Part shown: piece by piece, positions 6,416 to 58,255 of the stretch | Layout of the letters: the number at the start of each line of letters is the position of its first letter | Numbering within the stretch: position 1 is the first letter of the stretch | NCBI GenBank assembly: GCA_025201375.1 | Contig: JAIWZP010000088.1 | Coordinates: forward strand, 1-64,000 | DNA: 64,000 bases | Origin: Gongronella butleri | Taxonomy: Eukaryota > Mucoromycota > Mucoromycetes > Mucorales > Cunninghamellaceae | Reading direction: 5' to 3' | The notes under the pieces: model-generated | Seen by the model: the letters and a program-made list of their open reading frames with translations, nothing else | Database searches by the model: none | What the model was told of the DNA's origin: nothing | Translations under genes and position numbers: made by a program

Positions 6416-8053
6416 TCAGGCTTCCTTGTTAGCCAGCTCGGCAGCCTCCTTCAAAGCTTCACGGCGCGATTTGCTCTTGGGATCAAAGTAAGGCGCCTCG
6501 GCAGTGGGTGTCACACGGAATCCGCTCCTAAAAATCAGAAAACATTCAGTCAATTGGGGCAATTGTGCCTTTTTTTTTCTTTGCACGTACCTCTTGCCGA
6601 GATCGAGGTAGTCAAAGATGGCCGAGTGGAACGTGACGCGATTGTCGTACACTATAAAAAAAGTAGAATGTTATTAAGAATTATTCTACATGGCGTTTGC
6701 TTGCGAGTTTACCGGCCACGTCGCCCTCTAGAATAAAAAACAACAATACAAAGGTGATCAGCTTTTGCTTCCATTGTAAACGTTTGATGGCTTACCCTCC
6801 CATTTGTGGCGCACTTGGAAATCGTAGCCACCGGCAATGTGCTCATAGAGCAGCTTGAGAAGCGCGTCACTCTCGTGTTTGCGGAGTTCTTGAATGTCGC
6901 GCGTGAATCCCGGCTGGACAAAGAGAGATTTCCATCCCGTGACCTAGTAAAGACACGCATGAGCCTTTTTGTCTCATCCTCGTGTCTGTTTTCTTACAGG
7001 ATGGGTACGGATCACCGGGTGGAAGACATCGTCGCGCACTTCACGACGAAGCGTGCGGCCATACTTCTCAGCCACGCGGATATGCGCATCACCATAGTGC
7101 TTGGCCGTCAGGCCTTCCAAAAACGTGCGAAGCACAGGCGACAAGCGGTCGTACTACAATAAAAACAATCAATTCGCGTCTATTCAACGGGCTTTTTCTT
7201 TTTAAAAAGAGCTTACAGCCTCATAACCATTGTACCAAACGGTGTCCTGTTGAAGTGCAACAAAAGAAAATGTAAAAAAAAAAAAAAAAAAGGGTGGTGA
7301 GAAGAATTGCGTCAATGGATTCAGCGTAGGTGCCTGGTCACTTACACCACCTGTCTTGGGAAGCACGTTGATCGTCAAAAATGTGAGACCCGCGGGCTGC
7401 TTTTCGTACGTGATGTCGCTGTGGATGCCATCCGCCGTGATGCGCTCCTTCAATTCCCTCTTGTACTCGCTGTTGAATAAAAATAGCGATGTTCAGCGCG
7501 ATTCATCTTTTCTTTTGCATGTTTTACCTATTTTCGTCCGAATAGATGGACAAAAGTTCAGGGTAGTTTTCGGGGTGGCCGCCGACGTTGTGGATGTGCA
7601 AGGGACCATAGTAGCGGCCCAGCTCGAGGGCATCAATGGGGTCAAAATCTTGCTTTTTGAAGAAAAGCACGCCACGCTCGGCTGCCAGCAACGCAAGGTC
7701 GTTCTTTTGTTGCTCCGTCAGCTTCGTCAGCTGCAGACCTTCAATCACAGTGCCAATGGTCGGCGTCACGTCGCTGACCTTGGTTGCAGCGTCCAAAATG
7801 GACGATTTCTTGGGATCCGCAAGCAAGCCAGGGTCCTTGTGCTCAAACGCTTCGATGCGTGGATACACCTTCTCAGGGAAAACCTAATAAATGCAATAAA
7901 GGGGTCTGTTAGCGGGCCATCGGGTCGTAAAAGGCAAAATAAAATGGATAAAAAAATCGACATTACGAAATAAGGGCCAACCTCGCGAGCGAGCTTGGCC
8001 AGATCAAGCTTGGATTCAGTAGCCACTGTGTTTTCAGTGTTGGGAGGAGCCAT
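6416..8053 (-). CDS. TauD-1: Fe(II)/2-oxoglutarate dioxygenase, nine exons
   Basis: A TauD/TfdA-type dioxygenase of 357 residues; fungal members include Jlp1-like sulfonate dioxygenases, which use 2-oxoglutarate and oxygen and may release sulfite. Exons in order: 8053-7982, 7883-7528, 7469-7346, 7246-7217, 7153-6998, 6943-6796, 6727-6713, 6651-6591 and 6527-6416. The iron site is visible as the HxD of IHSDITYEKQP and the distal His of IRTHPVTGW; the 2-oxoglutarate Arg is in GFTR. Two exons are tiny (30 and 15 bases), yet the joined frame matches the paralogs throughout (GDTVWYNGYEA, EEGDVAVYDNR). It is the most diverged of the five copies and differs from them in intron positions. A TATAAAAG lies 67 bases before the ATG on this strand. 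The substrate is not known. Confidence 0.92.
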
Positions 8054-9786
8054 TGTTAGTTGTTTGGAAGAGTGATTGATTAGAAAAGTAAAGATTTCTT
8101 TCAAAATTGCGTGGACGCGCTTTTATACCTTTTGATACGCGCGCGCGCACGCGCATCTTTTATTTGCTTTTTGTTCACAAGACAGCATCCTAATGACAAC
8201 AACAATGGCGTGATTCTTGAATTCTTTGGTGCAAGTGGGAAATTGCATCTAATGTGGCAATGGCTTTTGAAAATTGACCCGCATTATGGGTTTTGTGTCT
8301 ATTTGAGATCACAATCATGATGAAAGGCATACTTTTTGTAGCAATTGGGAGGGCCTTTATTTTGTTCTGCGTAGGTCTCGCCGGCTGCACCTTCGGTACT
8401 ATATCGACATTGCCGCTTGGAGAGCAATGGAGGCCAATTTCGCGCTTCTTTCACACGCGGACTTTTACAAATGGGGACAAAAGATAATCTTTTCCGTCGC
8501 AGCAGCTGGAAAGATCGCCGATAAGGCGGCGGACATGCCAGAGGCGAGGACACAGCACCAAAGGACCGGCTTTGCGCGCACAGACGCGCGCCGCTGCGGC
8601 ACCTTGAATAAATATAGCAAATTCAAACGTCGCTGCACCGCGATTCCTTGGATGTCGTGCCGCACACACCTGGGTCGACGCGCAACATGTAATTGTTATT
8701 TTTTAAGCGATTGACGCGTCACTGATGTGGATTGCTATTGTAAACGATTCAAAATCGTGTCCAAGGGCTCTCAATGGCTTCATATTTACTTTATCCCCTT
8801 AAAGTTCCATGAATGAACCCTTGTGACGCGATTGCTCAAGATGACAACGCGATGGTGGCATCGTGGTATCAGATCTGGCTGATTGGGTCATGAAATCATG
8901 CCAAAAAGTGGCACAAAGATGCCTCATTGGGCCTCCAATGGCAAGTTTTTTGTCACTCTTGCTAATAAAAAAATCGCAGAGATCATTTAGTAGCGCGGGC
9001 ACAGGCGGACAAAGGACCTTTCTTGAACAGCCCACATATTCAATAATTTCCAATTCAAATGAGCAAAAAAAAAAAAAAAAAAACTTTAGTTCAAAGACAA
9101 GGCAAAAACAAAAGAACACTGGCGTGAGAGTTGAGTCGTGAGTATCATATTTGCGAATGATTTTCATGCATAAAAAGGTAAAAAGATTCCCCATTTGGCA
9201 TACAACAACGGCAAACTCGCTCGCAAAAGCTCTCTTGCTGCCACTTGATGAATAGCAATGGATATTATTCAATACGCGCGCCCACCCGCTTTTGTTTCAA
9301 ACTTCTATTAAGCAGCCCACGTTTGTAATTCGGTCAATCCAACAAGCAAAAAAAAAAAAAAAGACATTGATCAAGGACTCGTCATAAAAAAAGAACAGTG
9401 GCGTGGGTGCTTTGTGTGATCAAAAGTGACAACAGTCGTGGGATGAATGGCGCCATTCTGGGCATTTGTAGAGTTATTCACAGCAATTGGTCCCTAAAAG
9501 GAAACTAAGACTTTGAACGCTTTGGGCAGCGTGCAAGCCGAGTTTAATTCAGAGCAAGCGCACTTGGGAACGCGCTGCAGAGCTTTTTTTCTTTTTACGT
9601 GTACAATTCACAGCGTCAGCCAAAGCATTGCAAACCCTGGTTACCTTTTAGGGAACAATTGCTCTGAGAAATCGAGAAACGCGATGCGGAGTTTTTAAAA
9701 CTGCGATTCGCGTCATAAAAAGCATCTGTCGCGATGCTCACTTTCTCTTTTTTTTATTCATTCTCTTCAAAAATAACACATCAAAC
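8054..9786. other. Divergent intergenic region of TauD-1/TauD-2 with an R3 upstream block
   Basis: There is no convincing gene in these 1.7 kb. The TauD-1 side has the minus-strand TATAAAAG at 8127-8120 and a CG-repeat (gcgcgcgcgcacgcgc) near 8138. From about 8405 the sequence matches the upstream regions of TauD-3, TauD-4 and TauD-5, for example 'cgcttggagagcaa', 'cgtcgcagcagctgg', 'cagcaccaaagg', 'gacgcgattgctcaag' and 'ctgattgggtcatg'. It also holds the shared 14-bp palindrome. Short frames here are not conserved between copies. Confidence 0.7.
9445..9458. promoter_or_regulatory. 14-bp perfect palindrome upstream of TauD-2
   Basis: GAATGGCGCCATTC is its own reverse complement and is found unchanged upstream of TauD-3, TauD-4 and TauD-5. 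Here it lies 329 bases before the ATG. A downstream TGCGGAGTTT (9685-9694) and a weak TATA-like CATAAAA follow. Binding by a dimeric transcription factor is an inference. Confidence 0.6.
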
Positions 9787-11395: not shown

Positions 11396-11589
11396 GGCTC
11401 AATATCTAGGCCAGTGACTAGACCAAATTATTATATTGCGACAGTAAAGATATTTTTATTGTATTTTTCGTGGGCGCTACCAGATAATTTGTCAGTCTTA
11501 CTGCACAACGTGTAACGAACAAATGTCGAGAAAGACTGCAGCAAGGTTAACGCGTAGCATCAAAGACGACCTTGTGCGTCAAAAGCAGG

Positions 11590-12570: not shown

Positions 12571-12993
12571 TTTTACTGCGCGAAATCAAATTTGGTTCTC
12601 TCTGAGCAATGCTTGCAATGTAACCCCGAAGTTATTATAAGGTTATACTGCGATCACTGCGGCAGCAAAAGGCGCAGCTGTGCAAAGGCAACGCATTCTC
12701 GTTCGATGACGCTTGAGGACATTCTCGTCAGCCAAACTATTCGTCGGCATATCAGCAGTGCTGTTATTTTTGTAGGGAAAGGGAGGAGGGGGGCAAGGCA
12801 TTGTACAAGCTGGCTGTGACAAAAAAAAAAAAAAGCGGGCTGTGTCTTGCGCGTTCTTGTGTGACCATCTCCGTTGGTCACACACAAAGTCCTCCAAAAG
12901 TGTTGCCACTTGCATCTTTATCCATGTTTCTTTTTCTTTTTGGTGTTTTTTTTTTTTTTTGTTTTATTCACCTTCTCGTCCATTATATCCACA

Positions 12994-15210: not shown

Positions 15211-15299
15211 ACTTGTAAGCTTTTTAAAGCACTAAACGTGTCATATGACCGCGGTGATTGCGCCCGCGTCAATCTGTTTCTTTGGTAGACAAGCCTGAA

Positions 15300-16361
15300 T
15301 TGTCGCTTGGAGAGCAATTGAGGACAGCGGTGCGGTTTCTTTTTCTTTTTTTTTTCTGGCAGGAAAAATTGAGACTATTACAAATTGGACTCAAAAGATT
15401 ATCTTTTTCGTCGCAGCAGCTGGCATGATCACCGATAAGGTAGCCGACGTGTCAAAAGCGAGGATACAGCACCAAAGGTTTGGTTCCGGGGTGCACAGAC
15501 GCGCGCCGCTGTAGCGCTTTGTGCAAATTTATGTAAAAAAAAACCTTATTTGAAGGATAGGCCGCGGCGAATCCTCGGATTTACCTAGTATTGTTTGTGC
15601 AAGGAATGAAACGCAATATGCTTTTTTATGTCTATTTAAGCGATTGACACGGCATGGACGCGTATTACTATTGTAAATGTTTGAAATTAGTGCCCAATGG
15701 CTTCCAAAGGGTTTAAAAAAAACTTGCTATTTCTCTTTGAAGGTCCATGCACAGGCTCTCACAAAACGATTGCTCAACGTGACAAAGCAATGGTGACATC
15801 GCATTATCAGGTCAGTCTGATTGGGTCATGGATCATGCGTAGTTGCGATCTTTTTTTTTTTTTTTTTTTGCAAAAAAAGGGCAAAACGATTCCCCATTTG
15901 GCTGTCAATGGCTAACTGCGCACTCTTTGCTACTCTTGTGGATTGATGCGTCGCAGAGAATATCATACAATTTGCTCGTGCCCTACAGACTCTAATATAA
16001 AAGACCAAATTGACGCATTTAACCAGGCCGATGAGTGCAAAAACAAAGGACAATATGCCATTGTCCTTTTTTTTTATCTCCATTGTCTCGGCACTAGCAG
16101 AGGACAATGGCGTGAGAGAAGGTTGCTTCATGTGCTCAAGGGTTGATGATGATGGCGTCAATTGAATACGAGTTGACACCAGTCGCGGGGATGAATGGCG
16201 CCATTCTAGGCTCTGGTGGCCTAAAAAAGGGCAGCTGGGAATTTTCGGCGCCCGTGCGGAGTTTATGACGCGAGTGGCGTATATAAAACATAGCGTCAGC
16301 TGGCGTGATTTCTCGCTTTTTCTTTTTTTTATTCATTCTATTCAAGAAAAACACGTACAAT
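15300..16361 (+). repeat. R3 upstream block of TauD-3
   Basis: This is the second copy of the roughly 1-1.4-kb block that sits before each plus-strand TauD gene. Shared landmarks are 'cgcttggagagcaa', 'aaaagattatctttt', 'cgtcgcagcagctgg', 'cagcaccaaagg', 'gattgctcaa', 'tatcaggtcagtctgattgg' and 'gatggcgtcaatt'. It is more diverged than the nearly identical blocks before TauD-4 and TauD-5. No coding gene is evident. Confidence 0.65.
16193..16288 (+). promoter_or_regulatory. TauD-3 core promoter: palindrome, pre-TATA module, TATA box
   Basis: GAATGGCGCCATTC occupies 16193-16206, TGCGGAGTTT 16255-16264 followed by GACGCGAG, and TATATAAAA 16280-16288. The ATG is at 16362, so the TATA lies about 75 bases before the coding start. 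The same order is kept at TauD-4 and TauD-5. Confidence 0.65.
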
Positions 16362-17959
16362 ATGGCCCCCAATACTGAAACCATCCCAATTGAGCAAGTC
16401 ACAGACCTCGTTCACCAATTGGACATCCAAGGCTCTGACAAGAAAGTGGTAAGAAAGCAATGGCGTGCAGAATTTGCCGTACATTGGCGATTTTTGACGC
16501 CAACGCCATTCTCTTAGACGTTCCCCCGCGTGGTGTACCCTCCCTTGGAAATCTTTGAGCATCACGACCCTGGCCACCATGCTGATACCAAGAAAGCATC
16601 CATTTTGGAGCAGGCATCGCAGGTTGTGGACCTGACCCCCAGCATTGGCACAGACATCCACGGCATTCAATTGTCGCAATTGACCGAGCAACAAAAGAAC
16701 GACCTGGCGCTTCTCGTTGCCGAGCGCGGCGTCGTCTTTTTCAAAAACCAAGACATTGACTCTGACCAGCTCGTCGAGTTGGGCAAGCACTATGGTAAAA
16801 ACAAAGAAAAATGAGACGCGACGCGTCATTCGCGCGTTGATTGGTACTTATACTTGCTTCGTAGGCCGTCTGCACCATCACCCCGTGTCTGGTCACGAAG
16901 AAAAGAATCAATATGCTCTGAGCATCTACAGCGATCCTGCAAGGTAGGCAAAACAAAATGCAATGTAGACTTTTGCCATTCAACTAATCCCATTTCTTGA
17001 TTTTATTTTGCAGCTCGCAGAAATTCCGTGGCCAGCGCGAGGCCCTGCCCAGTTCAAGCAGTAATACAAGAGCCACGAAAAAAAAAGCAAAATCTCATAT
17101 TCTCCTTGCTTTTTTACTTTTTGCTATTAGCTTTGCACAGCGACATTACATTTGAGAAGCAGCCAGCTGGTCTGACGTTCTTGAAATTGGAGGTGATTCC
17201 TGCTGTTGGTGGTGACACGGCCTGGTACAGCGGATATGAGGCATATGACCGTCTTTCGCCTGCGCTCAAGAAATTCCTTGAGGGTCTCAGCGCGACGCAC
17301 CGCGGCGACGTGTTTGAGCGCTTCTCTGAGGCAACGGGCATCCCTCTGCGCCGCGAATTACCCCAAGACACCGTCCACCCGGTCATCCGCACGCATCCCG
17401 TCACCGGCTGGAAATCCCTCTATGTCCAGCCTGGTTTCACACGCTCCATTGTTGGCCTTCGCAAGCACGAGAGCGATGCACTTCTCAAGCTTCTCTTTGA
17501 GCACTTGTCCGGTGGATACGGTAAGTTTTTTAAAGAAAAAAAAAGCACCACGCGGCCCCACGCGAATTGAACATTTTGTTTACCGCTCACACTCCTTCTT
17601 TTTGTAACCAGACTTCCAAGTGCGCCACAAGTGGTCGCCTGGTGATGTTGGTAAGAGCCTACAAAGGACTATATGGACGCAGAGTCAAGCTAATATCTCA
17701 ATTTTATTTTTTTCTTTGTATTTTTAGCCATTTGGGACAATCGCGTCACAAATCACTGCGCCATCTTTGATTACGAAGGCGTTGCGACTCGGTAATAAAA
17801 AAAACCAATTAAAAGAAGAAACGTCAGGCTAATCAACACGCATTTCCCCCCCAATATCATAGATATGGTTTCCGTGTCACGCCTCAAGCCGAGGTGCCTT
17901 ACTTTGATCCCAAGAGCAAATCGCGTCGCGAGGCTCTGAAGGAGCAAAAGAGCCAATAG
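16362..17959 (+). CDS. TauD-3: Fe(II)/2-oxoglutarate dioxygenase, eight exons
   Basis: A 359-residue dioxygenase. Exons: 16362-16448, 16518-16794, 16865-16943, 17014-17060, 17131-17520, 17612-17650, 17728-17791 and 17863-17959. The HxD is in LHSDITFEKQP, the distal His in IRTHPVTGW and the 2-oxoglutarate Arg in GFTR, at the same positions as in TauD-2. From the last third of exon 2 to the stop it is almost identical to TauD-4, introns included, while its 5' part differs from TauD-4. That pattern marks it as one parent of the chimeric TauD-4. Intron 2 keeps GAGACGCGACGCGTC. It is probably cytosolic, with an unknown substrate. Confidence 0.93.
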
Positions 17960-18058
17960 ACATCATATCCAGGAAAAACGAGCTAGGTTATGACCAAATG
18001 ACAATAAAAAAATCAGATATTCCTGTGTTTCTGGCAATGGCTACATAGCACGCAAGAG

Positions 18059-18379
18059 GTGACGGGCGATTTCTGCGGCCACATGATGCTGCAATTTGCA
18101 CCGCCATCCTACGCAACAGGTCGCAATGCGCCACTTTTTGTACACGCCAACCTGCTCAAGGTCACGGACAAGGTGCATTTCCTTGAGCAGGATGCAGCAA
18201 AGGCGGACACGAAATCCAACCGCGATTTTACGTCATTTACGAGGGCTGCGCCTGCATGGATTTTTATGGCAGTCAATGGAGAGCCTGCACCGGAGCTCCT
18301 TGATTTTGATCACGTGCTCACAGAATTCCAGCACCTCTACTTTGAATTTGGCGGCATTGGCGGCCAAACCCATTTTTGA
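18059..18379 (+). pseudogene. Small unrecognised frame, unit 1 copy (no ATG)
   Basis: An open frame of about 106 codons (GDFCGHMMLQFAPPSYAT near the start, FDHVLTEFQHLYFEFGGIGG at the end) follows TauD-3. I recognise no family. Where the unit 2 copy has ATG (agcATGcaagag), this copy reads ACG, so the likely start is lost. The remainder of 17.96-19.3 kb is the BAHD-1 promoter region and holds no other gene that I can support. Confidence 0.35.
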
Positions 18380-19299
18380 TCAAGCGGATCATATTGAAGC
18401 TGCCTAGAAGCATCGGCCCAAAGTGCTTATATTTCAGTTGGTTATCATTTTCATTGGCAAATAATCGTTAAAACCATAAATACGCTCCAAATCGGCAAGA
18501 TTTTCACAACATTCTAACCAACTATTATTTTTTTATTGCATATAATGCGACTAACCGAGGTCTGAAAAGTGCACAGCAAGTTTGATGCGCATCAGCATAT
18601 TGAACAACAGTGAGTACTACATGAAAACGCCAAAAACGTTCTCAAATCGCAATTGCTCTCTTTACGTGATTCGATCTTTAAATTTTGAAGCCGTTGATGC
18701 TGTCATCATTAAATGGACAGTGTTCGGTTTTGCCATTTTTAGCAACCTGCAGAAATCTTGGATCACGAGCCAACTGGGTTTTGGGAAGCCTCACGGATTT
18801 CGCATGAATATGATCGCCTCGTTTCATTGTAAGAGAGTACCCCGACCGGGATGTCGGTATCTTTTCCGCCACATACTCAATTCAACGAAAACATGCTATG
18901 GCCATAAATAAAAGCGAGCACGTTCGACGTGCCAAAAATAAAATCATTGTTTTCCGGACCACGAATAGCAGTGAGCAATATAATCGTGAAAGGTAACGGG
19001 CCGAGTGCGGCTGCATACTCGACCACTGATCATGCGAACAGACAAATCAATGTTTCGCAGCGAATCGCTGTGGTGCCCTTTTACAGCATTATTATCTTTT
19101 TTTAGAATACATCATGATGCACTCTGACCTTTTTTTTTCCGTGGTGTTCAATCAGCGAATAAGGAGGGGAAGCCGGTTGATGGCCGGCTTGGAATTGGCA
19201 GGACGTCAGCTGCTGCCTGAGATCATCGTGATGTAAGCTTAAAAGGGCCGTCATTTTTTGAATGAACCATTTCGACATTGTTGGCCCTCATTTTACTTC

Positions 19300-20747
19300 A
19301 TGTCGCTCGAAACTTTTGCAGTGCTTCCAAGCAATAAACACGGCCGCCCAGCCGCTCCGTCTGAAATCAAGCTGCATGGCTTTGACGTTTTTTCCTCTTG
19401 TACTCAAATTCGCAGCCATCTGACATTCATGACGCCGGCGTCGCCCGCAGAATGCATCGACAAGCTCAAAAGGGCCCTGGCTGAAGCTCTTGAGCTATAT
19501 CCTCCGGTCAATGGCACGGTGATCACCAAGGATGACGGCTCTAAATTCATTGCCTTGGACGACAATCATTTGCAGGCAACACCCCTGATTGTCGAGACGC
19601 GTGATGGTCCCTACGAGGGTGACAGCGAGGATCTGTCTCCACGTCAGGGTGTGATGGTGCAACCCGATTCTCCCATTTTTGCCGCTAAAGTGACCATAGT
19701 AAGTACAAAAACCAAGGGGAAATGCATAAAAGAATGTCAATGACTCTTTTTATAATTATATTTGCCAAGTTTTCGTGCGGCACCATGGTCATAGCGTCGT
19801 CCATGAATCACCTAGTGTGCGATTTGCAAGGCTTCCTTGATTTTGTGGAGCTTTGGGCAAGACTGACGCGCGGCGAGCAAGTTGACTATACAAAGATCCC
19901 TGACGATTGGACGCGTACGCCACAGCGTTTTTTTGCGCCCCATAGCGGCAAGCTGATGGTGCCACCTGGCATCATGGTCGGGGACAGCTCTCAAGATACA
20001 GTTCAGGTGGCGCCGGCGCCTTCGACGACAACGCGATGGCACGTGCCTGCTGCCAAGGTGGCACAGCTGAAGCGCGACTTGGCGCCGGACGACGATGAAA
20101 TGTGGATTTCGACAAGCGACGCGCTGACGGTCCTGATCAGCGGCGCGGTCACCCGCGCGCGCGAGACGAGTAAAGTCGAGCGCCAGACGGGTCAAGTCGG
20201 GTTCACGCGGCGCACGCCAGCAGACCACAGCGTCGAGACGATTGTCATAGTGGCGGACATTCGCGAACAGGCGTTGCGCGGCGACATGGCGAATGGGCGC
20301 TATTTCGGCAACGCCTGTATAGCGTTGGTAGTACCAGTGTCGCGAGCGGATCTCATGTCGCCCACGGCTACCGCTGCGTCGCGCGCCGCCGTCGCCATCC
20401 GAAATCACATCAAGCAGCGACTGTCGCAGAAGGAAATCAGTGGTCACCTTGCGTTCCTTGAGAACCCCGGTATTCTAGTGCCCGGCCGCACCTTTTGTGT
20501 CACCGACATATTCGTCTCTAACTGGTGCAAATTCGACCTAGATGGCCCCAAACTCGACTTTGGCTGGGGTAAACCAAGCCACTACACTGACGGCAACGGC
20601 ACAGAGACCTCCTTGCCGCCCGCCATCTCGTTGATCAGGCAGAAAAAGGACTCTGGCGATGTGTTTATGCTCATAACCGTCGAGGTTCCCGGAGCAGATG
20701 CGCTCAAGAATGATCCACTGCTTACAAAATATGGTGAACTTTTGTAG
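19300..20747 (+). CDS. BAHD-type acyltransferase 1
   Basis: A two-exon gene (19300-19698, 19770-20747) for 458 residues of the transferase family that moves an acyl group from acyl-CoA to an alcohol or amine. The catalytic HxxxD is H147-D151 (NHLVCD), with an SSMNH context typical of the family, and the structural motif DFGWG is at about 396-400. The start at 19300 (MSLETFAVLPSNKHGRP) is the first in-frame ATG. It has no signal peptide. The fungal relatives include trichothecene-type O-acetyltransferases and plant BAHD-like enzymes, so specificity cannot be read from the sequence. Its placement between TauD genes, duplicated together with them, suggests a shared pathway of oxidation and acylation. 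Confidence 0.9.
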
Positions 20748-22304
20748 ATTGTTGTATTTGCCTGCCTACATAGTTCGATATCAAATATATCATAGCTGAA
20801 ATCTTTTAACCTATGCGATTGTGTAAATCAAACAAGAAAAAAATTGAATTTACCCGTATGTCTATTGACTTGTACTCGATTTGGCCGATTTCTTGCTTTT
20901 TTTTGCGCAGAGTTCGTGATTTTTGCTTCTCGGAATTGCATGACATCTTTTGCTTGACACTTTTACATCGGAGCTTGACCGTTGCGCGTTGCATTTTGCC
21001 CTGATTTCACACGTCGTGTAACGAGAATCGTCCAGCCGATTGATTAACACTTTGAAATAGGTCAGTCGCAAATTCCTAAAGATCAGATGTTTTAAATGTG
21101 AGAAAACTTAAACGAGGTCTCGGACAGGTACTATAGACTCTCCTTTTTATCTGCAACCTTTTATGAACTTGATAATGCAGCGCATGTTGAAACCTCGAAA
21201 CGAGTTCCCACGCAAATTTCGGCCCACAGTTCGCAAGTACAACTGCCCATCCGCCGCGACTAGCCTACGTGTAGATAGCCTTTATGAGAAAAGGGGACCT
21301 CAAACGCACTCTATTGCATCTCGTGGGAGAAACGCCGCGCGGCTTTTGCAAATGGGGCACAAAAGATTATCTTTTCCATCACAACGTCCAGAAAGATTGC
21401 CACTGGGGAGGCTGACGTGTTCGAGACAAGGACGCAGCACCAAAAAATCGGGTCCAGGCGCACAAATGCGGGACGCTGCGGCACCTTGTATAAATTTAGC
21501 AACAATTGCTCGAAATCGGTATCGCACGCGCCTGGAATGACGCGCAGCGTGCAGCTTGTTGCTTTTTCTCTTCGAGATTGACGCAATACTGACGCGGTTT
21601 ACCTTTGTAAACGCTTCTAATTAGTACCCAAGGGCTCACATGGGCTTTATAGCTTTCTTTTTTTTTTTTTCCTTTTTTTTCTATTTTGACGCATATAAAT
21701 GAGCTCTTGTGACGCGATTGCTCAAGGTGGCAACACAATGGTGGCATCGGGCTATCAGATCAGTCTGATTGGGTCATGGATCGCGCGTAGATGCGATATT
21801 TTTATATTTTCTCATGCAGAAAAGGGCAAAAAGATTCCTCATATGGCTTTTGATGGAAAAATATGTTGTTGACGCGTCGCAGAGAATAGTCTTCATTCGT
21901 GTATGCACCCGTGGATCATAGACTCAGCTTGAACGGCCTAATCCCAATGTTCAAAAAAAAAAAAAAGAAATCAAAAGCCAGTGTTCTTTATTTTTTTTAT
22001 CTCCATGTACGCCGCACAAGCAGAGAAAAATGGTGTGAGAGAACATTGCTTTGTGTCCTCGCTGGCCGATGCTGATGGCGTCAATTAAATACGAGTTTGT
22101 ACCGGCTGCGGGGTTGAATGGCGCCATTCCTGGCAATGGGGTGGCAATTGCGCCCCAAAAGAGGCAACCGGGATGTTCGGCGCCCCTGGGGAAAGTGCTG
22201 CGGAGTTTACGACGCGAGTTGCGCATATAAAAAGCAGTATCAGCTGTCGTGTATTTCTCGCTTTTTCTTGTTTTATTCATTCTTTCAAGAAAAACACGTA
22301 CAAT
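20748..22304 (+). repeat. Intergenic BAHD-1 to TauD-4, with R3 block (unit 1)
   Basis: These 1.55 kb are nearly the same as 26673-28215. The block includes 'gacgcgattgctcaagg', a hairpin-like ATCAGA-TCAG-TCTGAT (21754-21769) and 'gatggcgtcaattaaatacg'. A 125-codon frame starting at 21163 is shortened in the second copy by a stop, so I do not call it a gene. Confidence 0.7.
22116..22232 (+). promoter_or_regulatory. TauD-4 core promoter: palindrome, pre-TATA module, TATA box
   Basis: GAATGGCGCCATTC is at 22116-22129, TGCGGAGTTT at 22199-22208 followed by GACGCGAG, and TATAAAA at 22226-22232, 73 bases before the ATG at 22305. The promoter looks intact even though the coding sequence is broken. 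Confidence 0.65.
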
Positions 22305-23902
22305 ATGGCCCCCAATACTGAAACCATCCCAATCGAACATGTCACAGACATTGTGCACCAATTGGACATCCAAGGCTCTGACAAGAAAGTGGTAAGAAAA
22401 AGTCAATGGCAAGGGAACTGCGCCGGACATTTGCGTTTTTGACACCAACACCGCTCTCTTAGACGTTCCCCCGCGTGGTGTACCCTCCCTTGGAAGTCTT
22501 ATGAGCACCACGACCCCGGTCATCATGCTGATCCCAAGAAAGCGTCCATTTTGGAGCAAGCATCGCAGGTCGTGGACGTGACCCCCAGCATTGGCACTGA
22601 CATCCACGGCATTCAATTGTCGCAATTGACCGAGCAGCAAAAGAACGACCTGGCGCTTCTCGTTGCCGAGCGCGGCGTCGTCTTTTTCAAAAACCAAGAC
22701 ATTGACTCTGACCAGCTCGTCGAGTTGGGCAAGCACTATGGTAAAAACAAAGAAAAATGAGACGCGACGCGTCATTCGCGCGTTGATTGGTACTTATACT
22801 TGCTTCGTAGGCCGTCTGCACCATCACCCCGTGTCTGGTCACGAAGAAAAGAATCAATATGCTCTGAGCATCTACAGCGATCCTGCAAGGTAGGCAAAAC
22901 AAAATGCAATGTAGACTTTTGCCATTCAACTAATCCCATTTCTTGATTTTATTTTGCAGCTCGCAGAAATTCCGTGGCCAGCGCGAGGCCCTGCCCAGTT
23001 CAAGCAGTAATACAAGAGCCACGAAAAAAAAAGCAAAATCTCATATTCTCCTTGCTTTTTTACTTTTTGCTATTAGCTTTGCACAGCGACATTACATTTG
23101 AGAAGCAGCCAGCTGGTCTGACGTTCTTGAAATTGGAGGTGATTCCTGCTGTTGGTGGTGACACGGCCTGGTACAGCGGATATGAGGCATATGACCGTCT
23201 TTCGCCTGCGCTCAAGAAATTCCTTGAGGGTCTCAGCGCGACGCACCGCGGCGACGTGTTTGAGCGCTTCTCTGAGGCAACGGGCATCCCTCTGCGCCGC
23301 GAATTACCCCAAGACACCGTCCACCCGGTCATCCGCACGCATCCCGTCACCGGCTGGAAATCCCTCTATGTCCAGCCTGGTTTCACACGCTCCATTGTTG
23401 GCCTTCGCAAGCACGAGAGCGATGCACTTCTCAAGCTTCTCTTTGAGCACTTGTCCGGTGGATACGGTAAGTTTTTTAAAGAAAAAAAAAGCACCACGCG
23501 GCCCCACGCGAATTGAACGTTTTGTTTACCGCTCACACTCCTTCTTTTTGTAACCAGACTTCCAAGTGCGCCACAAGTGGTCGCCTGGTGATGTTGGTAA
23601 AAGCCTACAAAGGACTATATGGACGCAGAGTCAAGCTAATATCTCAATTTTATTTTTTCTTTGTACTTTTAGCCATTTGGGACAATCGCGTCACAAATCA
23701 CTGCGCCATCTTTGATTACGAAGGCGTTGCGACTCGGTAAGAGAAAAAAAAATTAAAAGAAGAAACGTCAGGCTAATCAACACGCATTTCCCCCCAATAT
23801 CATAGATATGGTTTCCGTGTCACGCCTCAAGCCGAGGTGCCTTACTTTGATCCCAAGAGCAAATCACGTCGCGAGGCTCTGAAGGAGCAAAAGAGCCAAT
23901 AG
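22305..23902 (+). pseudogene. TauD-4: chimeric dioxygenase gene with a 1-base frameshift
   Basis: Exons corresponding to the paralogs are 22305-22391, 22463-22740, 22811-22889, 22960-23006, 23077-23466, 23558-23596, 23673-23736 and 23806-23902. Exon 2 is 278 bases where all paralogs have 277. One extra T near 22499-22500 (gtcTTatgagc against gtcTatgagc in TauD-5) brings a stop codon into frame about 13 codons into exon 2. All splice sites, the HxD region (LHSDITFEKQP) and the distal His remain, so the break is recent or a base-call error. Up to about 22637 the gene matches TauD-5; from about 22655 it matches TauD-3. As written, only a fragment of some 42 residues would be made. Confidence 0.85.
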
Positions 23903-23993
23903 GGCATTATTTCCAGGGAAAACGAGCTAGGTTATGACCAAATGACAATAAAAAAATCAGATATTCCTGTGTTTCGGGCAATGGCTACATAGC

Positions 23994-24314
23994 ATGCAAG
24001 AGGTGACGGGCGATTTCTGCGGTCACACGATGCTGCAATTTGCGCCGCCATCCTACGCAACAGTTCGCAATGCGCCACTTTTTGTACACGCCAACTTGCT
24101 CGAGATCACGGACAGGTGCATTTCCTTGAGCAGGATGCAGCAAAGGCGGACACTAAATCCTACCGCGATTTTACGTCATTTACAAGGCCGCATGGACTTT
24201 GTGGCGGCCAATGGAGAGCCTGCAACGGAGGGCCTTGATTTTGATCACGTGCTCACAGAATTCCAGCATCTCCACTTTGAATTTGGCGGCATTGGCGGCG
24301 AAACCCGTTTTTGA
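23994..24314 (+). pseudogene. Small unrecognised frame, unit 2 copy (internally shifted)
   Basis: This is the counterpart of the frame at 18059. It has an ATG (23994) and the same opening, but a base lost near 24113 shifts the middle; the closing FDHVLTEFQH segment returns to frame after another indel. Both copies are thus broken in different ways. The rest of 23.9-25.2 kb mirrors unit 1 and contains no other supported gene. Confidence 0.35.
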
Positions 24315-25224
24315 TCAATAGGATCATAATGAAGCTGCCTAGAAGCATCGGCTCAAAGTGCTTATATTTCAGTTGGTTATGAATTTCATTGGCAAACAAT
24401 GGATAAAACCATAAATACGCTAAAATCGGCACGGTTTTCACAACCGTCTAATTGACTCTCATTTTTTTATTGCATATCATGCGACTAACCGAGGTATGAA
24501 AAGTGCACAGCGAGCTTGATGCGCTTCAGCATATTGAACAGCAGTGGGTACTACATGAAAACGCCAAAAACGCGCTCAAATCGCAATTGTTCTCTTTACA
24601 TTGATTCAATCCAGCCGTTGATGCTGACATCATCACCAAGTGGACAGTGTTCGGTTTTGCCATTTTCAGCAATCTGCAAGAGATCTTGGATCACGAGGTA
24701 ACGGTGTTTCGGGAAGCCTCACGGACTTCGCATGAACGTGATCGCCTCGTTTCATTGTCAGAGAGTACCCCGACCGGGATGTCGGTATCTTTTCTGCCAC
24801 ATACACAATTCAACGAAAACATGCTATGGGCATAAATAAAAGCAAGCACGTTCGACGTGCCAAAAATAAAATCATTGTTTTCCGGACCACGAATAGCAGT
24901 GTGAGCGATATAATCGATTAAAGTAACGGACCGAGTGCGGCTGCATACTCGACCACTGATCATGCCAACAAACAAATTAATGTTTCGCAGCGAATCGTTG
25001 TGGTGCCCTTTTATAATTATTTTTTTTAGAGCACATCATGAGGCACTCTGCGACCCTTTTTTTTCGTGGTGTTCAATCAGCGAGTAAGGAGGGGAAGCCG
25101 GTTGATGGCCGGCTTGGAATTGGCAGGACGTCAGCTGCTGCCTGAGATCATCTTGATGTAAGCTTAAAAGGGCCGTCATTTTTTGAACGAACCATTTCGA
25201 CATTGTTGGCCCTCATTTTACTTC

Positions 25225-26672
25225 ATGTCGCTCGAAACTTTTGCAGTGCTTCCAAGCAATAAACACGGCCGCCCAGCCGCTCCGTCTGAAATCAAGCTGC
25301 ATAGTATTGACGTTTTTTCCACTTGTACTCAAATTCGCAGCCATCTGACATTCATGACGCCGGCGTCGCCCGCAGAATGCATCGACAAGCTCAAAAGGGC
25401 CCTGGCTGAAGCTCTTGAGCTATATCCTCCGGTCAATGGCACGGTTATCACCAAGGATGACGGCTGTAAATTCATTGCCTTGGACGACAATCATTTGCAG
25501 GCAACGCCCTTGATTATCGAGACGCGTGATGGTCCCTACGAGGGTGACAGCGAGGATCTGTCTCCACGTCAGGGTTTGATGGTGCAACTCGATTCCCCTA
25601 TTTTTGCCGCTAAAGTGACCATAGTAAGTACAAAAACCACGGGGAAATGCACAAAAGAATGTCAATGACTCTTTTTTTAATTATATTTGCCAAGTTTTCG
25701 TGCGGCACCATGGTCATAGCGTCGTCCATGAATCACCTAGTGTGCGATTTGCGAGGCTTCCTTGATTTTGTGGAGCTTTGGGCAAGACTGACGCGCGGCG
25801 AGCAAGTTGACTATACAAAGATCCCTGACGATTGGACGCGTACACCACAGCGTTTTTTTGCGCCCCATAGTGGCAAGCTGATGGTGCCACCTGGCATCAC
25901 AGTCGGGGACAGCTCTCAAGATACAGTGCAGGTGGCGCCGGCGCCTTCGACGACAACGCGATGGTACGTGCCTGCTGCCAAGGTGGCGCAGCTGAAGCGC
26001 GACTTGGCGCCGGACGACGACGAAATGTGGATTTCGACCAGCGATGCGCTGACGGTCCTGATCAGCGGCGCGGTCACCCGCGCGCGCGAGACGAGTAAAG
26101 TCGAGCGCCAGACGGGTCAAGTCGGGTTCACGCGGCGCACGCCAGCAGACCACAGCGTCGAGACGATTGTCCTGTTGGCGGACATCCGCGAACAGGCGTT
26201 GCGCGGCGACATGGCGAATGGGCGCTATTTCGGCAACGCCATCATAGCGTTGGTAGTACCAGTGTCGCGAGCGGATCTCATGTCGCCCACGGCTACCGCT
26301 GCGTCGCGCGCCGCCGTCGCCATCCGAAATCACATCAAGCAGCGACTGTCGCAGAAGGAAATCAGTGGTCACCTTGCGTTCCTTGAGAACCCCGGTATTC
26401 TAGTGCCCGGCCGCACCTCCTGTGTCACCGACATATTCGTCACAAACTGGTGCAAATTCGACCTCGATGGCCCCAAACTCGACTTTGGCTGGGGTAAACC
26501 AAGTAATTACACTGACGGCAACGGCACAGAGACCTCCTTACCGCCCGCCTTCTCGTTTATGAGGCAGAAAAAGGACTCTGGCGACGTGTTTATGCTCATA
26601 ACCGTCGAGGTTCCCGGAGCAGATGCGCTCAAGAATGATCCACTGCTTACAAAATATGGTGAACTTTTGTAG
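25225..26672 (+). CDS. BAHD-type acyltransferase 2
   Basis: The unit 2 copy of the acyltransferase, with exons 25225-25623 and 25695-26672 and 458 residues. HxxxD (NHLVCD) and DFGWG are both intact. Differences from BAHD-1 are scattered substitutions, for instance SIDVFSTCTQ for GFDVFSSCTQ near residue 31, LLADIREQA for IVADIREQA, and SNYTDG for SHYTDG after DFGWGKP. There are no indels in the coding sequence, so both copies appear to be under selection to stay intact while the neighbouring TauD-4 has decayed. The donor acyl-CoA and the acceptor are unknown. Confidence 0.9.
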
Positions 26673-28215
26673 ATTGTTGCATTTGCCTGCCTACATAGCT
26701 CAATATCAAATATATCATAGCTGAAATCTTTTAACCTATGCGATTGTGTAAATCAAACAAGAAAAAATTGAATTTACCCGTACATCTATTGACTTGTACT
26801 CGATTTGGAAGATTATTGCTTTTTTTGCGCAAAGTTCGTGATTTTTGCTTCTTGGAATTGCATGATATCTTTTGCTTGACACTTTTTACATCGGAGCTTG
26901 ACTGTTCCGCTTTGCATTTTGCCCTGACTTCACACGCCGTGTAACGAGAATCGTCCAGCCGATTGATTAACACTTTGAAATAGGTCAGTCGCAAATGCCT
27001 AAAGATCAGATGTTTTAAATGTGAGAAAACTTAAACGAGGTCTCGGACAGGTACTATAGACTCTCCTTTTTATCTGCAACCTTTTATGAACTTGATAATG
27101 CAGCGCATGTTGAAACCTCGAAACGAGTTCCCACGCAAATTTCGGCCCACAGTTCGCAAGTACAACTGCCCATCCGCCGCGACTAGCCTACGTGTAGATA
27201 GCCTTTATGAGAAAAGGGTACCTCAAACGCACTCTATTGTATCTCGTGGGAGAGACGCCGCGCGGCTTTTACAAATAGGGCACAAAAGATTATCTTTTCC
27301 ATCACAACGTCCAGAAAGATTGCCACTGGGGTGACTGACGTGTCCGAGACAAGGACGCAGCACCAAAAAATCGGGTCCAGGCGCACAAATGCGGGACGCT
27401 GCGGCGCCTTGTATAAATTTAGCAACGATTGCTCGAAATCGGTATCGCACGCGCCTGGAATGACGCGCAACGTGCAGCTTGTTGCTTTTTCTCTTCGAGA
27501 TTGACGCAACACTGACGCGGTTTACCTTTGTAAACGCTTCTAATTAGTACCGAAGGACTTAGATGGGCGTCATAGCTTTCTTTCTTTCCTTTTTTCTATT
27601 TCGACACATACAAGTGAGCTCTTGTGACGCGATTGCTCAAGATGGCAACACAATGGTGGCATCGGGCTATCAGATCAGTCTGATTGGGTCGTGGATCGCG
27701 CGTAGATGCGATCTTTTTTATATTTTCTCATGCAGAAAAGGGCAAAAAGATTCCCCATATGGCTTTTGACGGAAAAATATGTTGTTGACGCGTCGCAGAG
27801 AATAGTGTTCATTCGTGTATGCACCCGTGGATCATAGACTCGGCTTGAACGGCCTAATCCCAATGTTCAAAAAAAAGAAATCAAAAGCCAGTGTTCTTTA
27901 TTTTTTTTTATCTCCATGTACGCCGCACAAGCAGAGAACAATGGTGTGAGAGAACACTGCTTTGTGTCCTCGCTGGCCGATGCTGATGGCGTCAATTAAA
28001 TACGAGTTTGCACCAGCTGCGGGGCTGAATGGCGCCATTCCTGGCAATGGGGTGGCAATTGCGCCCCAAAAGAGGCAACCGGAATGTTCGGCGCCCCTGG
28101 GGAAAGTGCTGCGGAGTTTACGACGCGAGTTGCGCATATAAAAAGCAGTATCAGCTGTCGTGTATTTCTCGCTTTTTCTTGTTTTATTCATTCTTTCAAG
28201 AAAAACACGTACAAT
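26673..28215 (+). repeat. Intergenic BAHD-2 to TauD-5, with R3 block (unit 2)
   Basis: Near-identical to 20748-22304, including the hairpin-like ATCAGA-TCAG-TCTGAT near 27670-27685 and the 'gacgcgattgctcaag' word near 27624. It differs by small indels, for example in the T-rich stretch near 27580. No gene is supported. Confidence 0.7.
28027..28143 (+). promoter_or_regulatory. TauD-5 core promoter: palindrome, pre-TATA module, TATA box
   Basis: GAATGGCGCCATTC is at 28027-28040, TGCGGAGTTT at 28110-28119 followed by GACGCGAG, and TATAAAA at 28137-28143, 73 bases before the ATG at 28216. Spacing is the same as at TauD-4. Confidence 0.65.
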
Positions 28216-29825
28216 ATGGCCCCCAATACTGAAACCATCCCAATCGAGCATGTCACAGACATTGTGCACCAATTGGACATCCAAGGCTCTGACAAGAAAG
28301 TGGTAAGAAAAAGTCAATGGCAAGGGAACTGCGCCGGACATTTGCGTTTTTGACACCAACACCGCTCTCTTAGACGTTCCCCCGCGTGGTGTACCCTCCC
28401 TTGGAAGTCTATGAGCACCACGACCCCGGTCATCATGCTGATCCCAAGAAAGCGTCCATTTTGGAGCAAGCGTCACAGGTCGTGGACGTGACCCCCAGCA
28501 TTGGCACTGACATCCACGGCATTCAATTGTCGCAATTGACCGAGCAGCAAAAGAACGACCTGGCACTGCTTGTTGCCGAGCGTGGCGTCGTGTTTTTCAA
28601 AAACCAAGACATTGAATCTGACCAGCTTGTCGAGCTGGGCAAGCACTATGGTAGAAACAAAGAAAAATGAGACGCGACGCGTCATTCGCGCGTTGATTGA
28701 TACTTACACTTGCTTTGTAGGTCGTCTGCACCATCACCCCATTGCTGGCCACGAAGAAAAAAATCAATATGCTCTGAGCATTTACAGTGATCCTGACAGG
28801 TAAGCAAAAATGCAAACTTTGAGAAGTTTTACCATCCAATTGGTCTCATTTTTCTTTTTTTTCTTTTTTTCTTCGCTTGTTGTGCAGCGTGCGAAAATAT
28901 CGCGACCAGCGCGATGGTTTGCCCAGTGCAAGCAGTAATAAAAGGATCACTGAAAAGCCAAAAACGCAAAATCTCACGTTTTCTTGCTTTTTTTATAGCT
29001 TTGCACAGTGACATCACGTTTGAGAAGCAGCCAGCTGGTCTGACGTTCTTGAAATTGGAGGTGATTCCTGCCGTTGGTGGCGACACGATTTGGTATAGTG
29101 GCTATGAGGCGTATGACCGCCTGTCGCCTGCGCTCAAGCAATTCCTTGAGGGTCTCAGCGCGACACACAGCGGGGATCTCTTTGAGCGCTTTTCCGAGTC
29201 GACGGGCATCCCGCTGCGCCGTGAATTGCCCAAGGACACCATCCATCCCGTGATCCGCACGCATCCCGTCACCGGCTGGAAGTCCCTCTTTGTCCAGCCC
29301 AATTTCACGCGCTCCATTGTTGGCCTGCGCAAGCACGAGAGCGATGCGCTTCTTAAGCTTCTGTATGAGCACCTGTCTGGCGGCTATGGTAGGTTTTTTA
29401 AAGAAAAAAATAGCACGACACGAATTCACGCGAATTGAACACGTTGATTGTTTTCATGCTCACCTTCTTTCTTCTCGTAACCAGACTTCCAAGTGCGCCA
29501 CAAGTGGTCGCCTGGTGATGTTGGTAAGTGCTTGCAAAAGGAGTCAATAGCCGTTAAACCAAACTCATTCCCAAATTTTGGTTTTTTTCTGTATTTTTTA
29601 GCCATTTGGGACAATCGCGTCACGAATCACTGTGCCGTCGCTGATTACGAGGGCATTGCGACTCGGTAAGAGAAAAATCGTTGAGGGAAGCGCCAGGCTA
29701 ATTCACATGCTTTTTTTTTAAATCATAGTTATGGGTTCCGTGTCACGCCCCAAGCCGAGGTGCCTTACTTTGACCCCAAGAGCAAATCGCGTCGCGAGGC
29801 TCTGAAGGAGCAAAAGAGCCAGTAG
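28216..29825 (+). CDS. TauD-5: Fe(II)/2-oxoglutarate dioxygenase, eight exons
   Basis: A 359-residue dioxygenase. Exons: 28216-28302, 28374-28650, 28721-28799, 28888-28934, 28999-29388, 29485-29523, 29602-29665 and 29729-29825. The iron triad is in LHSDITFEKQP and IRTHPVTGW, and the 2-oxoglutarate Arg in NFTR (GFTR in the paralogs). Its 5' half is nearly identical to TauD-4 and its 3' half has diverged from TauD-3/TauD-4. Two donors are GTAG rather than GTAA (after exons 2 and 5). It closes the array; an R2 copy follows within about 200 bases. Confidence 0.93.
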
Positions 29826-30039
29826 GAGTCATATTCAGGACTCTCCAGCTAAATTGTCTCTTAATTTAATAAAGATGTCAAGTCCTTAAATAATAAGAAG
29901 TAATATAAAAATTAAAATCTCTCGATTTTGCATCAAGCTTATTTCCATGGAAACGTTGAAAACATAGAGAAAGACAGATTTTACTCTCTCGTCAGGTACT
30001 CAGACAACGAGTGCCATCAAAAAGGGGTCTAGATGAAGG

Positions 30040-58220: not shown

Positions 58221-58255
<35 letters not shown>

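What the first reader, a model, noticed from the sequence alone, without database searches (positions are those of the whole stretch)
6416..29825. Five-copy TauD dioxygenase array interleaved with BAHD acyltransferases
Five TauD-type genes and two BAHD genes fill 23 kb with almost nothing else, in the order TauD-TauD-TauD-BAHD-TauD-BAHD-TauD. The sequence shows intact iron and acyltransferase motifs in all but TauD-4. A dioxygenase plus acyltransferase cluster with no backbone synthase nearby could modify or detoxify an imported small molecule, or supply sulfur from a sulfonate. This is the best candidate here for an undescribed system.
Basis: partly seen in the sequence, partly recalled or inferred. 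Interest (0 to 1): 0.75.

Follow-up and report, generated by a model that had tools for sequence, protein, structure and literature searches.

The report
Tandemly duplicated fungal sulfonate-dioxygenase gene array
A soil fungus carries five neighbouring copies of an enzyme gene that probably frees sulfur from sulfonates such as taurine; the acyltransferase genes between them most likely came along when the DNA was duplicated, so the locus is largely ordinary, apart from a shared sulfur-control-like switch in front of the array genes.

Summary
The window is the first 64 kb of an 85-kb Gongronella butleri (Mucorales) contig. It holds five TauD-type genes (one inverted, one frameshifted) and two BAHD genes in the stated order.

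Tandem duplication explains the pattern. A 5.92-kb TauD+BAHD unit is repeated. T4 is a chimera, T5-like in its 5' part and T3-like in its 3' part, as unequal crossing-over predicts. T2, T3 and T5 are under purifying selection (dN/dS 0.10-0.14).

Adjacency to BAHD is probably hitchhiking. The TauD and BAHD matches found elsewhere in the genome share no contig, and the BAHD upstream regions lack the ATBRCGCCAT element.

The enzymes keep TauD's iron, 2-oxoglutarate and sulfonate-contacting residues (His70, Arg270), but not its taurine-amine residues.

The longest word shared by the T2-T5 upstream regions is TGAATGGCGCCATTC. It contains ATGGCGCCAT, a reported Neurospora CYS-3 sulfur-regulator site. 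T1, ATP sulfurylase and one sulfate permease carry related sites 161-188 bp before their start codons; most other sulfur genes checked do not.

Best reading: a sulfur-starvation-induced sulfonate-scavenging array with BAHD passengers. It is a new member of a known kind. The modest novelty is a CYS-3-like circuit suggested in Mucoromycota.

The parts
6416..8053 (-). T1: TauD/TfdA-type Fe(II)/2-oxoglutarate dioxygenase gene, 9 exons, 362 aa, divergent from T2
   Evidence: splice model, Pfam TauD 2.2e-54; public protein P0003 agrees except for a few residues at one small exon and the last two residues
9787..11395 (+). T2: TauD-type gene, 8 exons, 359 aa
   Evidence: splice model; sister of T3+T5 in the tree
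16068..21990 (+). Tandem unit 1 (T3 + mannosyltransferase-like remnant + B1), 5.92 kb
   Evidence: self-BLAST, 92.4% over 7.9 kb against the next unit
16362..17959 (+). T3: TauD-type gene, 8 exons, 359 aa
19300..20747 (+). B1: BAHD-type acyltransferase, 2 exons, 458 aa, HLVCD and DFGWG present
21991..27900 (+). Tandem unit 2 (T4 + remnant + B2)
22305..23902 (+). T4: chimeric TauD copy, 5' part T5-like and 3' part T3-like, frame broken in exon 2
22533..22658 (.). Switch interval in T4 between T5-like and T3-like sequence
   Evidence: 454 columns where T3 and T5 differ
25225..26672 (+). B2: BAHD-type acyltransferase, 2 exons, 458 aa, 96% identical to B1
27901..29826 (+). Partial tandem unit 3 (T5 only)
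28216..29825 (+). T5: TauD-type gene, 8 exons, 359 aa, identical to public protein P0001
9447..9456 (.). ATGGCGCCAT palindrome, -340 from T2 ATG
16195..16204 (.). ATGGCGCCAT palindrome, -167 from T3 ATG
22118..22127 (.). ATGGCGCCAT palindrome, -187 from T4 ATG
28029..28038 (.). ATGGCGCCAT palindrome, -187 from T5 ATG
8205..8214 (-). ATCACGCCAT (fits the first ten bases of the CYS-3 DAP-seq motif), -161 from T1 ATG
17990..18420 (+). Remnant related to a stretch on contig C67 (mannosyltransferase-like by eye), downstream of T3; a second copy at 23934-24355

Best explanation
This is a tandemly amplified set of fungal TauD/Jlp1-type sulfonate dioxygenases used to scavenge sulfur. SHOWN: gene structures, catalytic residues, tandem-unit structure, the chimeric T4, purifying selection on T2, T3 and T5, and the shared palindrome. 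INFERRED: under sulfur limitation a CYS-3/MetR-type bZIP factor binds the palindromes and switches on T1, T2, T3 and T5. The enzymes use Fe(II), O2 and 2-oxoglutarate to hydroxylate the carbon that bears the sulfonate. The adduct falls apart to an aldehyde and sulfite, and the sulfite enters sulfide and cysteine synthesis. Because the taurine-amine residues of E. coli TauD are replaced, substrates other than taurine are likely. Copies arose stepwise: T1 against the T2-T5 lineage, then T2 against T3/T5, then duplication of a TauD+BAHD unit by unequal crossing-over that made T4. The two BAHD acyltransferase genes are passengers in the duplicated unit.
For: Homology: Pfam TauD E 2.2e-54 and 6.6e-58; the best solved relatives are bacterial proteins named taurine dioxygenase, including E. 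coli TauD 1gqw. Residues: Fe ligands, Thr126, Arg266, His70, Arg270 and Phe206 equivalents are the same in T1, T2, T3 and T5, and His70 and Arg270 are kept in 117 of 117 non-gap rows of 120 relatives; His70 and Arg270 bind taurine in TauD (PMC9304159, passages). Array: unit identity 92.4%; T4 follows T5 and then T3; dN/dS 0.10-0.14. Regulation: 7 matches of ATGRYRYCAT in the window against 1.07 expected, four of them the perfect palindrome, one before each of T2-T5. The longest word common to the four 1.4-kb upstream regions is TGAATGGCGCCATTC. ATGGCGCCAT is a reported CYS-3 site and five N. crassa taurine dioxygenase genes are CYS-3-bound and up more than 59-fold in sulfur starvation (PMC8550094, passages). 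ATP sulfurylase has ATTGCGCCATC at -162 (position counted by hand) and one sulfate permease has the motif at -188 (start codon chosen by eye). TauD-like genes of Trichoderma reesei are methionine-repressible, one of them the most strongly repressed in the table seen (PMC4536894, passages).
Against: No expression, binding or enzyme data for this fungus were seen. Taurine-amine residues Tyr73, Asp94 and Asn95 are not conserved. The wider promoter test is weaker than its first count: 6 of 17 sulfur-related genes outside the array had ATBRCGCCAT within 1.5 kb, but 2 of the 6 sites lie in coding exons (sulfate permease C1 and TauD C16, the latter by eye and recall a carnitine-pathway-like protein rather than a sulfonate enzyme) and 2 lie more than 1 kb away, leaving 2 clear promoter sites. 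A perfect site in the sulfite-reductase gene is also coding. 8 of 10 sulfate-permease upstream regions, including the one in this window, have no ATBRCGCCAT. N. crassa has two further predicted taurine-dioxygenase genes that did not respond to sulfur starvation, so family membership alone does not prove sulfur control. T1 has no perfect palindrome of its own.
Confidence: 0.66

Rival explanations
1. A functional TauD+BAHD module: the dioxygenase hydroxylates a small molecule and the BAHD enzyme acylates it (biosynthesis or detoxification), and the pair was amplified as one unit because both are needed.
For: Both families are intact in unit 1 (T3, B1) and B2 is intact in unit 2. B1/B2 show constraint, dN/dS 0.28.
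Against: The co-duplication is explained by unequal crossing-over. T1 and T2 have no BAHD neighbour and T5 has none downstream. TauD hits elsewhere (C16, C22, C20, C34, C17) and BAHD hits elsewhere (C19, C69, C67) share no contig. ATBRCGCCAT is absent from 5 of 5 BAHD upstream regions, although the looser ATGRYRYCAT occurs once, at -1322 before the C67 gene. No backbone synthase was seen in the 10 window stretches checked by Pfam, which did not cover every gene.
Confidence: 0.1
2. The TauD copies act on a non-sulfur substrate, for example xanthine (XanA type), a phenoxy acid (TfdA type) or a secondary metabolite.
For: PF02668 is functionally broad; 2,4-D and phenoxypropionate dioxygenases and other non-sulfonate enzymes are among the 27 solved relatives. 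Residues around the taurine amine are not kept.
Against: The sulfonate-contacting His70 and Arg270 pair is invariant. The spacing from the first to the last iron histidine is 150 residues in T3 against 156 in E. coli TauD (His99, His255); a longer spacing in XanA is recalled, not tested. The promoter palindrome points to sulfur control.
Confidence: 0.18
3. The ATGGCGCCAT palindrome is conserved by chance or serves another factor, and the array is not under sulfur control.
For: The palindrome occurs at 201 places in the genome, and some occurrences lie in coding exons. The copies are paralogues, so four sites are not four independent events. Only 2 of 17 other sulfur-related genes have a clear promoter site.
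Against: It is the longest shared word in upstream DNA whose T2-T3 identity is otherwise mostly about 40-50%. Five of the six ATBRCGCCAT places in the window lie before T1-T5. None of 2000 column-permuted motifs reached the 6 of 17 upstream regions of the true motif, the highest being 4 (the 6 include coding and distant sites).
Confidence: 0.25
4. The near-identity and chimeric T4 are assembly artefacts.
For: T3 and T4 are identical over about 770 bases and T4 has a one-base length difference that breaks the frame.
Against: B1 and B2 differ at about 4% of residues, so the two units are distinct. The JGI assembly of this species (33.01 Mb) is reported as PacBio 150x (PMC9117579, passage). The single-base break alone could still be a sequencing error.
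Confidence: 0.06

Closest known systems
Saccharomyces cerevisiae Jlp1 (EC 1.14.11.17)
   Same: Fungal Fe(II)/2-oxoglutarate dioxygenase homologous to TauD, up under sulfur limitation; described in 2018 as the only experimentally verified enzyme desulfurizing aliphatic sulfonates in fungi (PMC5857272, passages).
   Different: Single gene in yeast; its sequence was not compared here. The array has five copies in a Mucoromycota fungus, four of them behind a CYS-3-type palindrome.
Neurospora crassa taurine dioxygenase genes tdo-2 to tdo-5 and suc-2 under CYS-3
   Same: Several TauD-type genes under a bZIP sulfur regulator whose sites are ATGGCGCCAT, ATGRYRYCAT and ATBRCGCCATC (PMC8550094, passages).
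   Different: Their gene numbers there are far apart, here the genes lie side by side. Binding is shown there and only predicted here.
Escherichia coli TauD
   Same: Fe ligands, Thr126, Arg266, His70, Arg270 and Phe206 equivalents kept.
   Different: Tyr73, Asp94 and Asn95 equivalents not kept; N-terminal extension of about 60 residues; eukaryotic gene structure.
BAHD acyltransferases (plant hydroxycinnamoyl transferases; fungal Transferase family PF02458)
   Same: PF02458 match and HxxxD and DFGWG motifs (that these motifs mark BAHD enzymes is recalled); weak similarity to plant HCT structures.
   Different: Acyl donor and acceptor unknown; the closest listed relatives carry no functional name beyond transferase and come mostly from early-diverging fungi and bdelloid rotifers.

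Membership tests
TauD/TfdA Fe(II)/2-oxoglutarate dioxygenases (PF02668) | Whole-domain profile match above cut-off | tested here: met
   T1 185.6 bits and T3 197.1 bits against cut-off 27; T2, T4 and T5 exon matches
TauD/TfdA Fe(II)/2-oxoglutarate dioxygenases (PF02668) | HxD...H iron triad and 2-oxoglutarate arginine | tested here: met
   H, D, H and R266 equivalents in T1, T2, T3, T5 (that Arg266 binds 2-oxoglutarate is recalled); T4 not scored because its frame is broken
TauD/Jlp1-type sulfonate dioxygenase | Sulfonate-contacting His70 and Arg270 | tested here: met
   that these two contact the sulfonate end is recalled, the passages say they bond to taurine
TauD/Jlp1-type sulfonate dioxygenase | Taurine-amine network Tyr73, Asp94, Asn95 | tested here: not met
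   S/G/A, S/T/I and S/A at these columns in the array; the E. coli residue is not among the six commonest at the Tyr73, Asp94 and Asn95 columns of the 120 relatives either, so this speaks against taurine specificity rather than against sulfonate use; the loop aligns with some uncertainty
TauD/Jlp1-type sulfonate dioxygenase | Release of sulfite from a sulfonate | not testable with these tools
   needs purified enzyme
CYS-3/MetR sulfur regulon | CYS-3 site in the promoter | tested here: met
   ATGGCGCCAT before T2-T5, ATCACGCCAT before T1
CYS-3/MetR sulfur regulon | Other sulfur genes carry the site | tested here: inconclusive
   ATP sulfurylase -162 and one sulfate permease -188; 8 of 10 sulfate-permease upstream regions have no ATBRCGCCAT and one of the two hits is coding
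CYS-3/MetR sulfur regulon | CYS-3-type bZIP encoded in the genome | tested here: inconclusive
   5 of 17 bZIP_2 matches have an RRRNT(A/E)ASARFR basic region; that this marks CYS-3/MetR is recalled, a text search for NTAASARFR found 0 papers
CYS-3/MetR sulfur regulon | Binding and sulfur-responsive expression | not testable with these tools
   no expression or binding data
BAHD acyltransferases | PF02458 match with HxxxD and DFGWG | tested here: met
   B1 110 bits; motifs in B1 and B2
Biosynthetic gene cluster | Adjacency of the two families recurring elsewhere | tested here: not met
   no shared contig elsewhere in the own genome; in 8 of 9 other species no shared contig length (visible rows only, one of the 8 compared across different strains; the ninth is one 4.7-Mb sequence)
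Biosynthetic gene cluster | Backbone synthase or tailoring genes nearby | tested here: inconclusive
   Pfam on 10 window stretches gave GH47 (two stretches), PP2A B56, PDZ, TCF25, WD40, sulfate permease, and three without a match; not every window gene was checked and the last 21 kb of the contig were not examined

The most novel reading that the evidence does not exclude
A CYS-3-type sulfur-control circuit, known to me here from ascomycetes (PMC8550094) and, by listing only, from Cryptococcus, reaches into Mucoromycota and drives a tandem-amplified dioxygenase locus whose enzymes keep the sulfonate grip but lack the taurine-amine pocket, so that they serve soil sulfonates other than taurine. 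ATGGCGCCAT-type promoter sites would then map the sulfur regulon of early-diverging fungi.
Probability: 0.4. Interest if true: 0.5.

Novelty: new member of a known kind. Interest (0 to 1): 0.33.

Why it matters
It turns a seemingly new system into a clear case of local gene amplification with a specific, cheap test (sulfur starvation or methionine repression). If the palindrome is a real CYS-3-type site, sulfur control by this circuit would extend to an early-diverging fungal phylum, and the array would be a model for sulfonate use by soil Mucorales. The chimeric T4 is a clean example of unequal crossing-over in a fungal tandem array.

Tried and rejected
TauD+BAHD as a cluster: rejected as the leading reading for the reasons under rivals. 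The window's own sulfate permease as a partner of the array: no CYS-3-type site within 1.5 kb upstream, so not claimed. ATGGCGCCAT upstream of a bZIP domain on C16 as autoregulation: the site is inside the coding frame of a Gcn4-like protein, rejected. A perfect site 2,265 bases before the C18 CYS-3-type bZIP domain lies beyond other coding-looking sequence, not claimed. The 6-of-17 promoter count (Poisson 1.2e-4) was downgraded after 2 coding and 2 distant sites were found; I had already seen some of these hits before fixing the 1.5-kb rule. With the looser ATGRYRYCAT, sites also appear before sulfate permeases C27 (-419) and C22 (-1255), TauD C17 (-1457) and BAHD C67 (-1322); I did not count these. 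PAPS reductase: site more than 1 kb away, not counted. The sulfite-reductase flank was fetched but left out of the 17; its site is coding. A second PAPS_reduct match on C45 was left out as a different protein by my judgement. Upstream lengths were 1131-1500 bases because some loci were shorter. A GATA-like conserved block upstream of T2-T5 was noticed but not pursued. Structure prediction and fold search were not run, since sequence homology was decisive. DNA of Hesseltinella or other fungi was not sought: states that this genome has no relatives in the genome set, and I know of no fungal collection among the tools.


Full report
WHAT IS THERE. The window is the first 64 kb of an 85,191-base contig in a 33.0-Mb genome of 110 contigs. 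Public proteins identical to T5 (P0001) and almost identical to T1 (P0003) are recorded for Gongronella butleri on a contig of that same length. T1, T3 and B1 were confirmed with Pfam. T4 has the same exon layout but its frame breaks in exon 2.

HOW THE ARRAY AROSE. Self-comparison shows 16068-23903 and 21991-29826 to be 92.4% identical, which gives tandem units of 5.92 kb, the third holding only T5. At 454 alignment columns T3 and T5 differ. T4 follows T5 with few exceptions up to about 22,533, is mixed to about 22,658, and then follows T3 with few exceptions; T3 and T4 are identical from about 22,680 to 23,451. A TauD-BAHD-TauD ancestor that recombined unequally within its TauD genes gives exactly TauD-BAHD-chimera-BAHD-TauD. 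Between units 1 and 2, the BAHD stretch is 95-98.5% identical in 200-base steps and the DNA between T and B is 84-94%. A maximum-likelihood tree of 89 rows, the 85 best relatives plus T1, T2, T3 and T5, places T2 as sister of T3+T5, Hesseltinella vesiculosa P0002 as their sister (100/100), and T1 as sister of that group (100/99). dN/dS is 0.12 (T2-T3), 0.14 (T2-T5), 0.10 (T3-T5) and 0.28 (B1-B2), with dS 0.51, 0.57, 0.42 and 0.073. The TauD copies T2, T3 and T5 have been kept as working enzymes, and the BAHD duplication is young.

IS THE BAHD LINK MEANINGFUL? TauD exon matches elsewhere in the genome are on C16, C22, C20, C34 and C17. BAHD matches elsewhere are on C19, C69 and C67. The two sets share no contig; both searches score only the best candidates and are lower bounds. 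The closest BAHD relative is another G. butleri protein, 65% identical, on a contig of 155,748 bases, which is the length of C69; no TauD match was found on C69. By eye, nine other species appear in both protein lists. Eight show no common contig length (one of them, Mucor circinelloides, compared across different strains), and the ninth, Mucor velutinosus, shares a 4.7-Mb sequence, which says little (120 of 1590 TauD hits were listed). No Hesseltinella protein is among the 79 BAHD hits (which scored only the 7998 candidates sharing most words). None of 5 BAHD upstream regions has ATBRCGCCAT; the looser ATGRYRYCAT occurs once, at -1322 before the C67 gene. I read the BAHD genes as passengers. 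A functional pairing is not excluded, because expression could not be examined.

WHAT THE ENZYMES DO. The best solved relatives are bacterial proteins named taurine dioxygenase. In E. coli TauD the iron is held by His99, Asp101 and His255, taurine bonds to His70 and Arg270, and Asp94, Asn95 and Ser158 position its amine (PMC9304159, passages). In T1, T2, T3 and T5 the iron ligands, Thr126, Arg266, His70, Arg270 and Phe206 equivalents are all kept. His70 and Arg270 are kept in 117 of 117 non-gap rows of 120 relatives. The Tyr73, Asp94 and Asn95 residues are not kept in the array, nor are they among the six commonest residues at those columns of the relatives (the loop before the iron histidine aligns with less certainty; Ser158 was not placed). 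That fits an enzyme that grips the sulfonate but not specifically taurine. The chemistry is that given for Jlp1: hydroxylation of the C-S carbon, then spontaneous breakdown to sulfite and an aldehyde (PMC5857272, passages).

HOW IT MAY BE CONTROLLED. The longest word common to the 1.4 kb upstream of T2, T3, T4 and T5 is TGAATGGCGCCATTC, at -343, -170, -190 and -190. It contains the palindrome ATGGCGCCAT. In the window ATGRYRYCAT occurs 7 times (expected 1.07; no shuffle of 100 reached 7), and the four perfect palindromes are exactly these promoter sites. ATBRCGCCAT occurs at six places, five of them before T1-T5. In Neurospora crassa these are the CYS-3 site from random oligonucleotides (ATGGCGCCAT), the footprint and mobility-shift consensus (ATGRYRYCAT) and the DAP-seq motif (ATBRCGCCATC); five taurine dioxygenase genes there are CYS-3-bound and rise more than 59-fold in sulfur starvation, while two further predicted ones were unchanged (PMC8550094, passages). 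A TauD-like gene is also the most strongly methionine-repressed gene in the Trichoderma reesei table seen (PMC4536894, passages).

TESTING THE CONTROL IDEA IN THE OWN GENOME. ATGGCGCCAT has 201 places in 33 Mb, with 16 for the reversed control; ATBRCGCCAT has 617+583 strand matches, that is 999 places when the 201 palindromes are counted once, with 38-39 for the control. Among 17 sulfur-related genes outside the array (10 sulfate permeases including the one in this window, ATP sulfurylase, PAPS reductase, 5 other TauD-family genes), 6 had ATBRCGCCAT within at most 1.5 kb upstream of the first domain exon. Of 2000 column-permuted motifs none reached 6 (maximum 4), and the Poisson chance from genome density is 1.2e-4. 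Inspection weakens this: two of the six sites are in coding exons (sulfate permease C1, and TauD C16, which by eye and recall looks like a carnitine-pathway protein rather than a sulfonate enzyme), two are more than 1 kb away (PAPS reductase, TauD C20), and a site in the sulfite-reductase gene, which was not one of the 17, is coding too. Two are clear promoter sites: ATP sulfurylase, ATTGCGCCATC at -162 (counted by hand), and one sulfate permease on C75, at -188. Their spacing resembles T1 (-161), T3 (-167) and T4/T5 (-187). Of 17 bZIP_2 matches, five have an RRRNT(A/E)ASARFR basic region, which I recall as CYS-3/MetR-like; a text search for the string NTAASARFR found no paper. The control idea is therefore likely for the array and only suggestive for the genome.

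VERDICT. Confirmed observation and ordinary mechanism of origin; the probable role is sulfur scavenging from sulfonates; the BAHD genes are probably incidental. Text searches for TauD with BAHD and fungal (0 papers), Gongronella butleri with genome (20 of 38 papers listed), Mucorales/TauD/sulfonate (12 of 147 listed), CYS3/MetR/sulfur/Mucoromycota (10 of 354 listed) and sulfur starvation/Mucor/taurine/CYS-3 (3 papers) showed, in the titles and abstract openings listed, nothing describing this locus or a Mucoromycota CYS-3 regulon; the library holds open-licence papers only.

Noticed in passing
14272-14957: A dispersed repeat of about 680 bases; the genome search scored dozens of further copies at about 72-86% identity (1140 candidates, 40 scored).
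   Followed up: partly
17990-18420 and 23934-24355: Remnant downstream of T3 and T4 related (70%) to a gene-like stretch on C67 (L018) that reads, by eye, like an alpha-mannosyltransferase.
   Followed up: partly
8460-8596, 15373-15511, 21338-21502, about 27270-27420: Conserved block of about 140 bases far upstream of T2-T5 with a GAT(A/T)ATC palindrome, possibly a second shared regulatory element.
   Followed up: no
57149-58500: SulP-type sulfate permease gene in the same window, about 27 kb from T5, without the CYS-3-type site within 1.5 kb upstream.
   Followed up: partly
46665-46682: Two overlapping CYS-3-like sites (ATGATGTCAT and ATGGCGTCAT) about 2.1 kb before the TCF25-like open frame.
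   Followed up: no
B1/B2 relatives (P0124, P0126, P0136, P0144): The BAHD family has about 45%-identical relatives in bdelloid rotifers (Adineta, Rotaria) amid fungal sequences, a possible horizontal transfer.
   Followed up: no
G000 C27, C1, C18, C15, C23 (L078, L079, L080, L083, L084): Five bZIP genes with an RRRNT(A/E)ASARFR basic region, a multi-copy set of possible CYS-3/MetR-type regulators.
   Followed up: partly
2453-3361, 47373-48223, 59839-60734: A second dispersed repeat of about 0.8-0.9 kb, about 77-78% identical between copies in the window.
   Followed up: no
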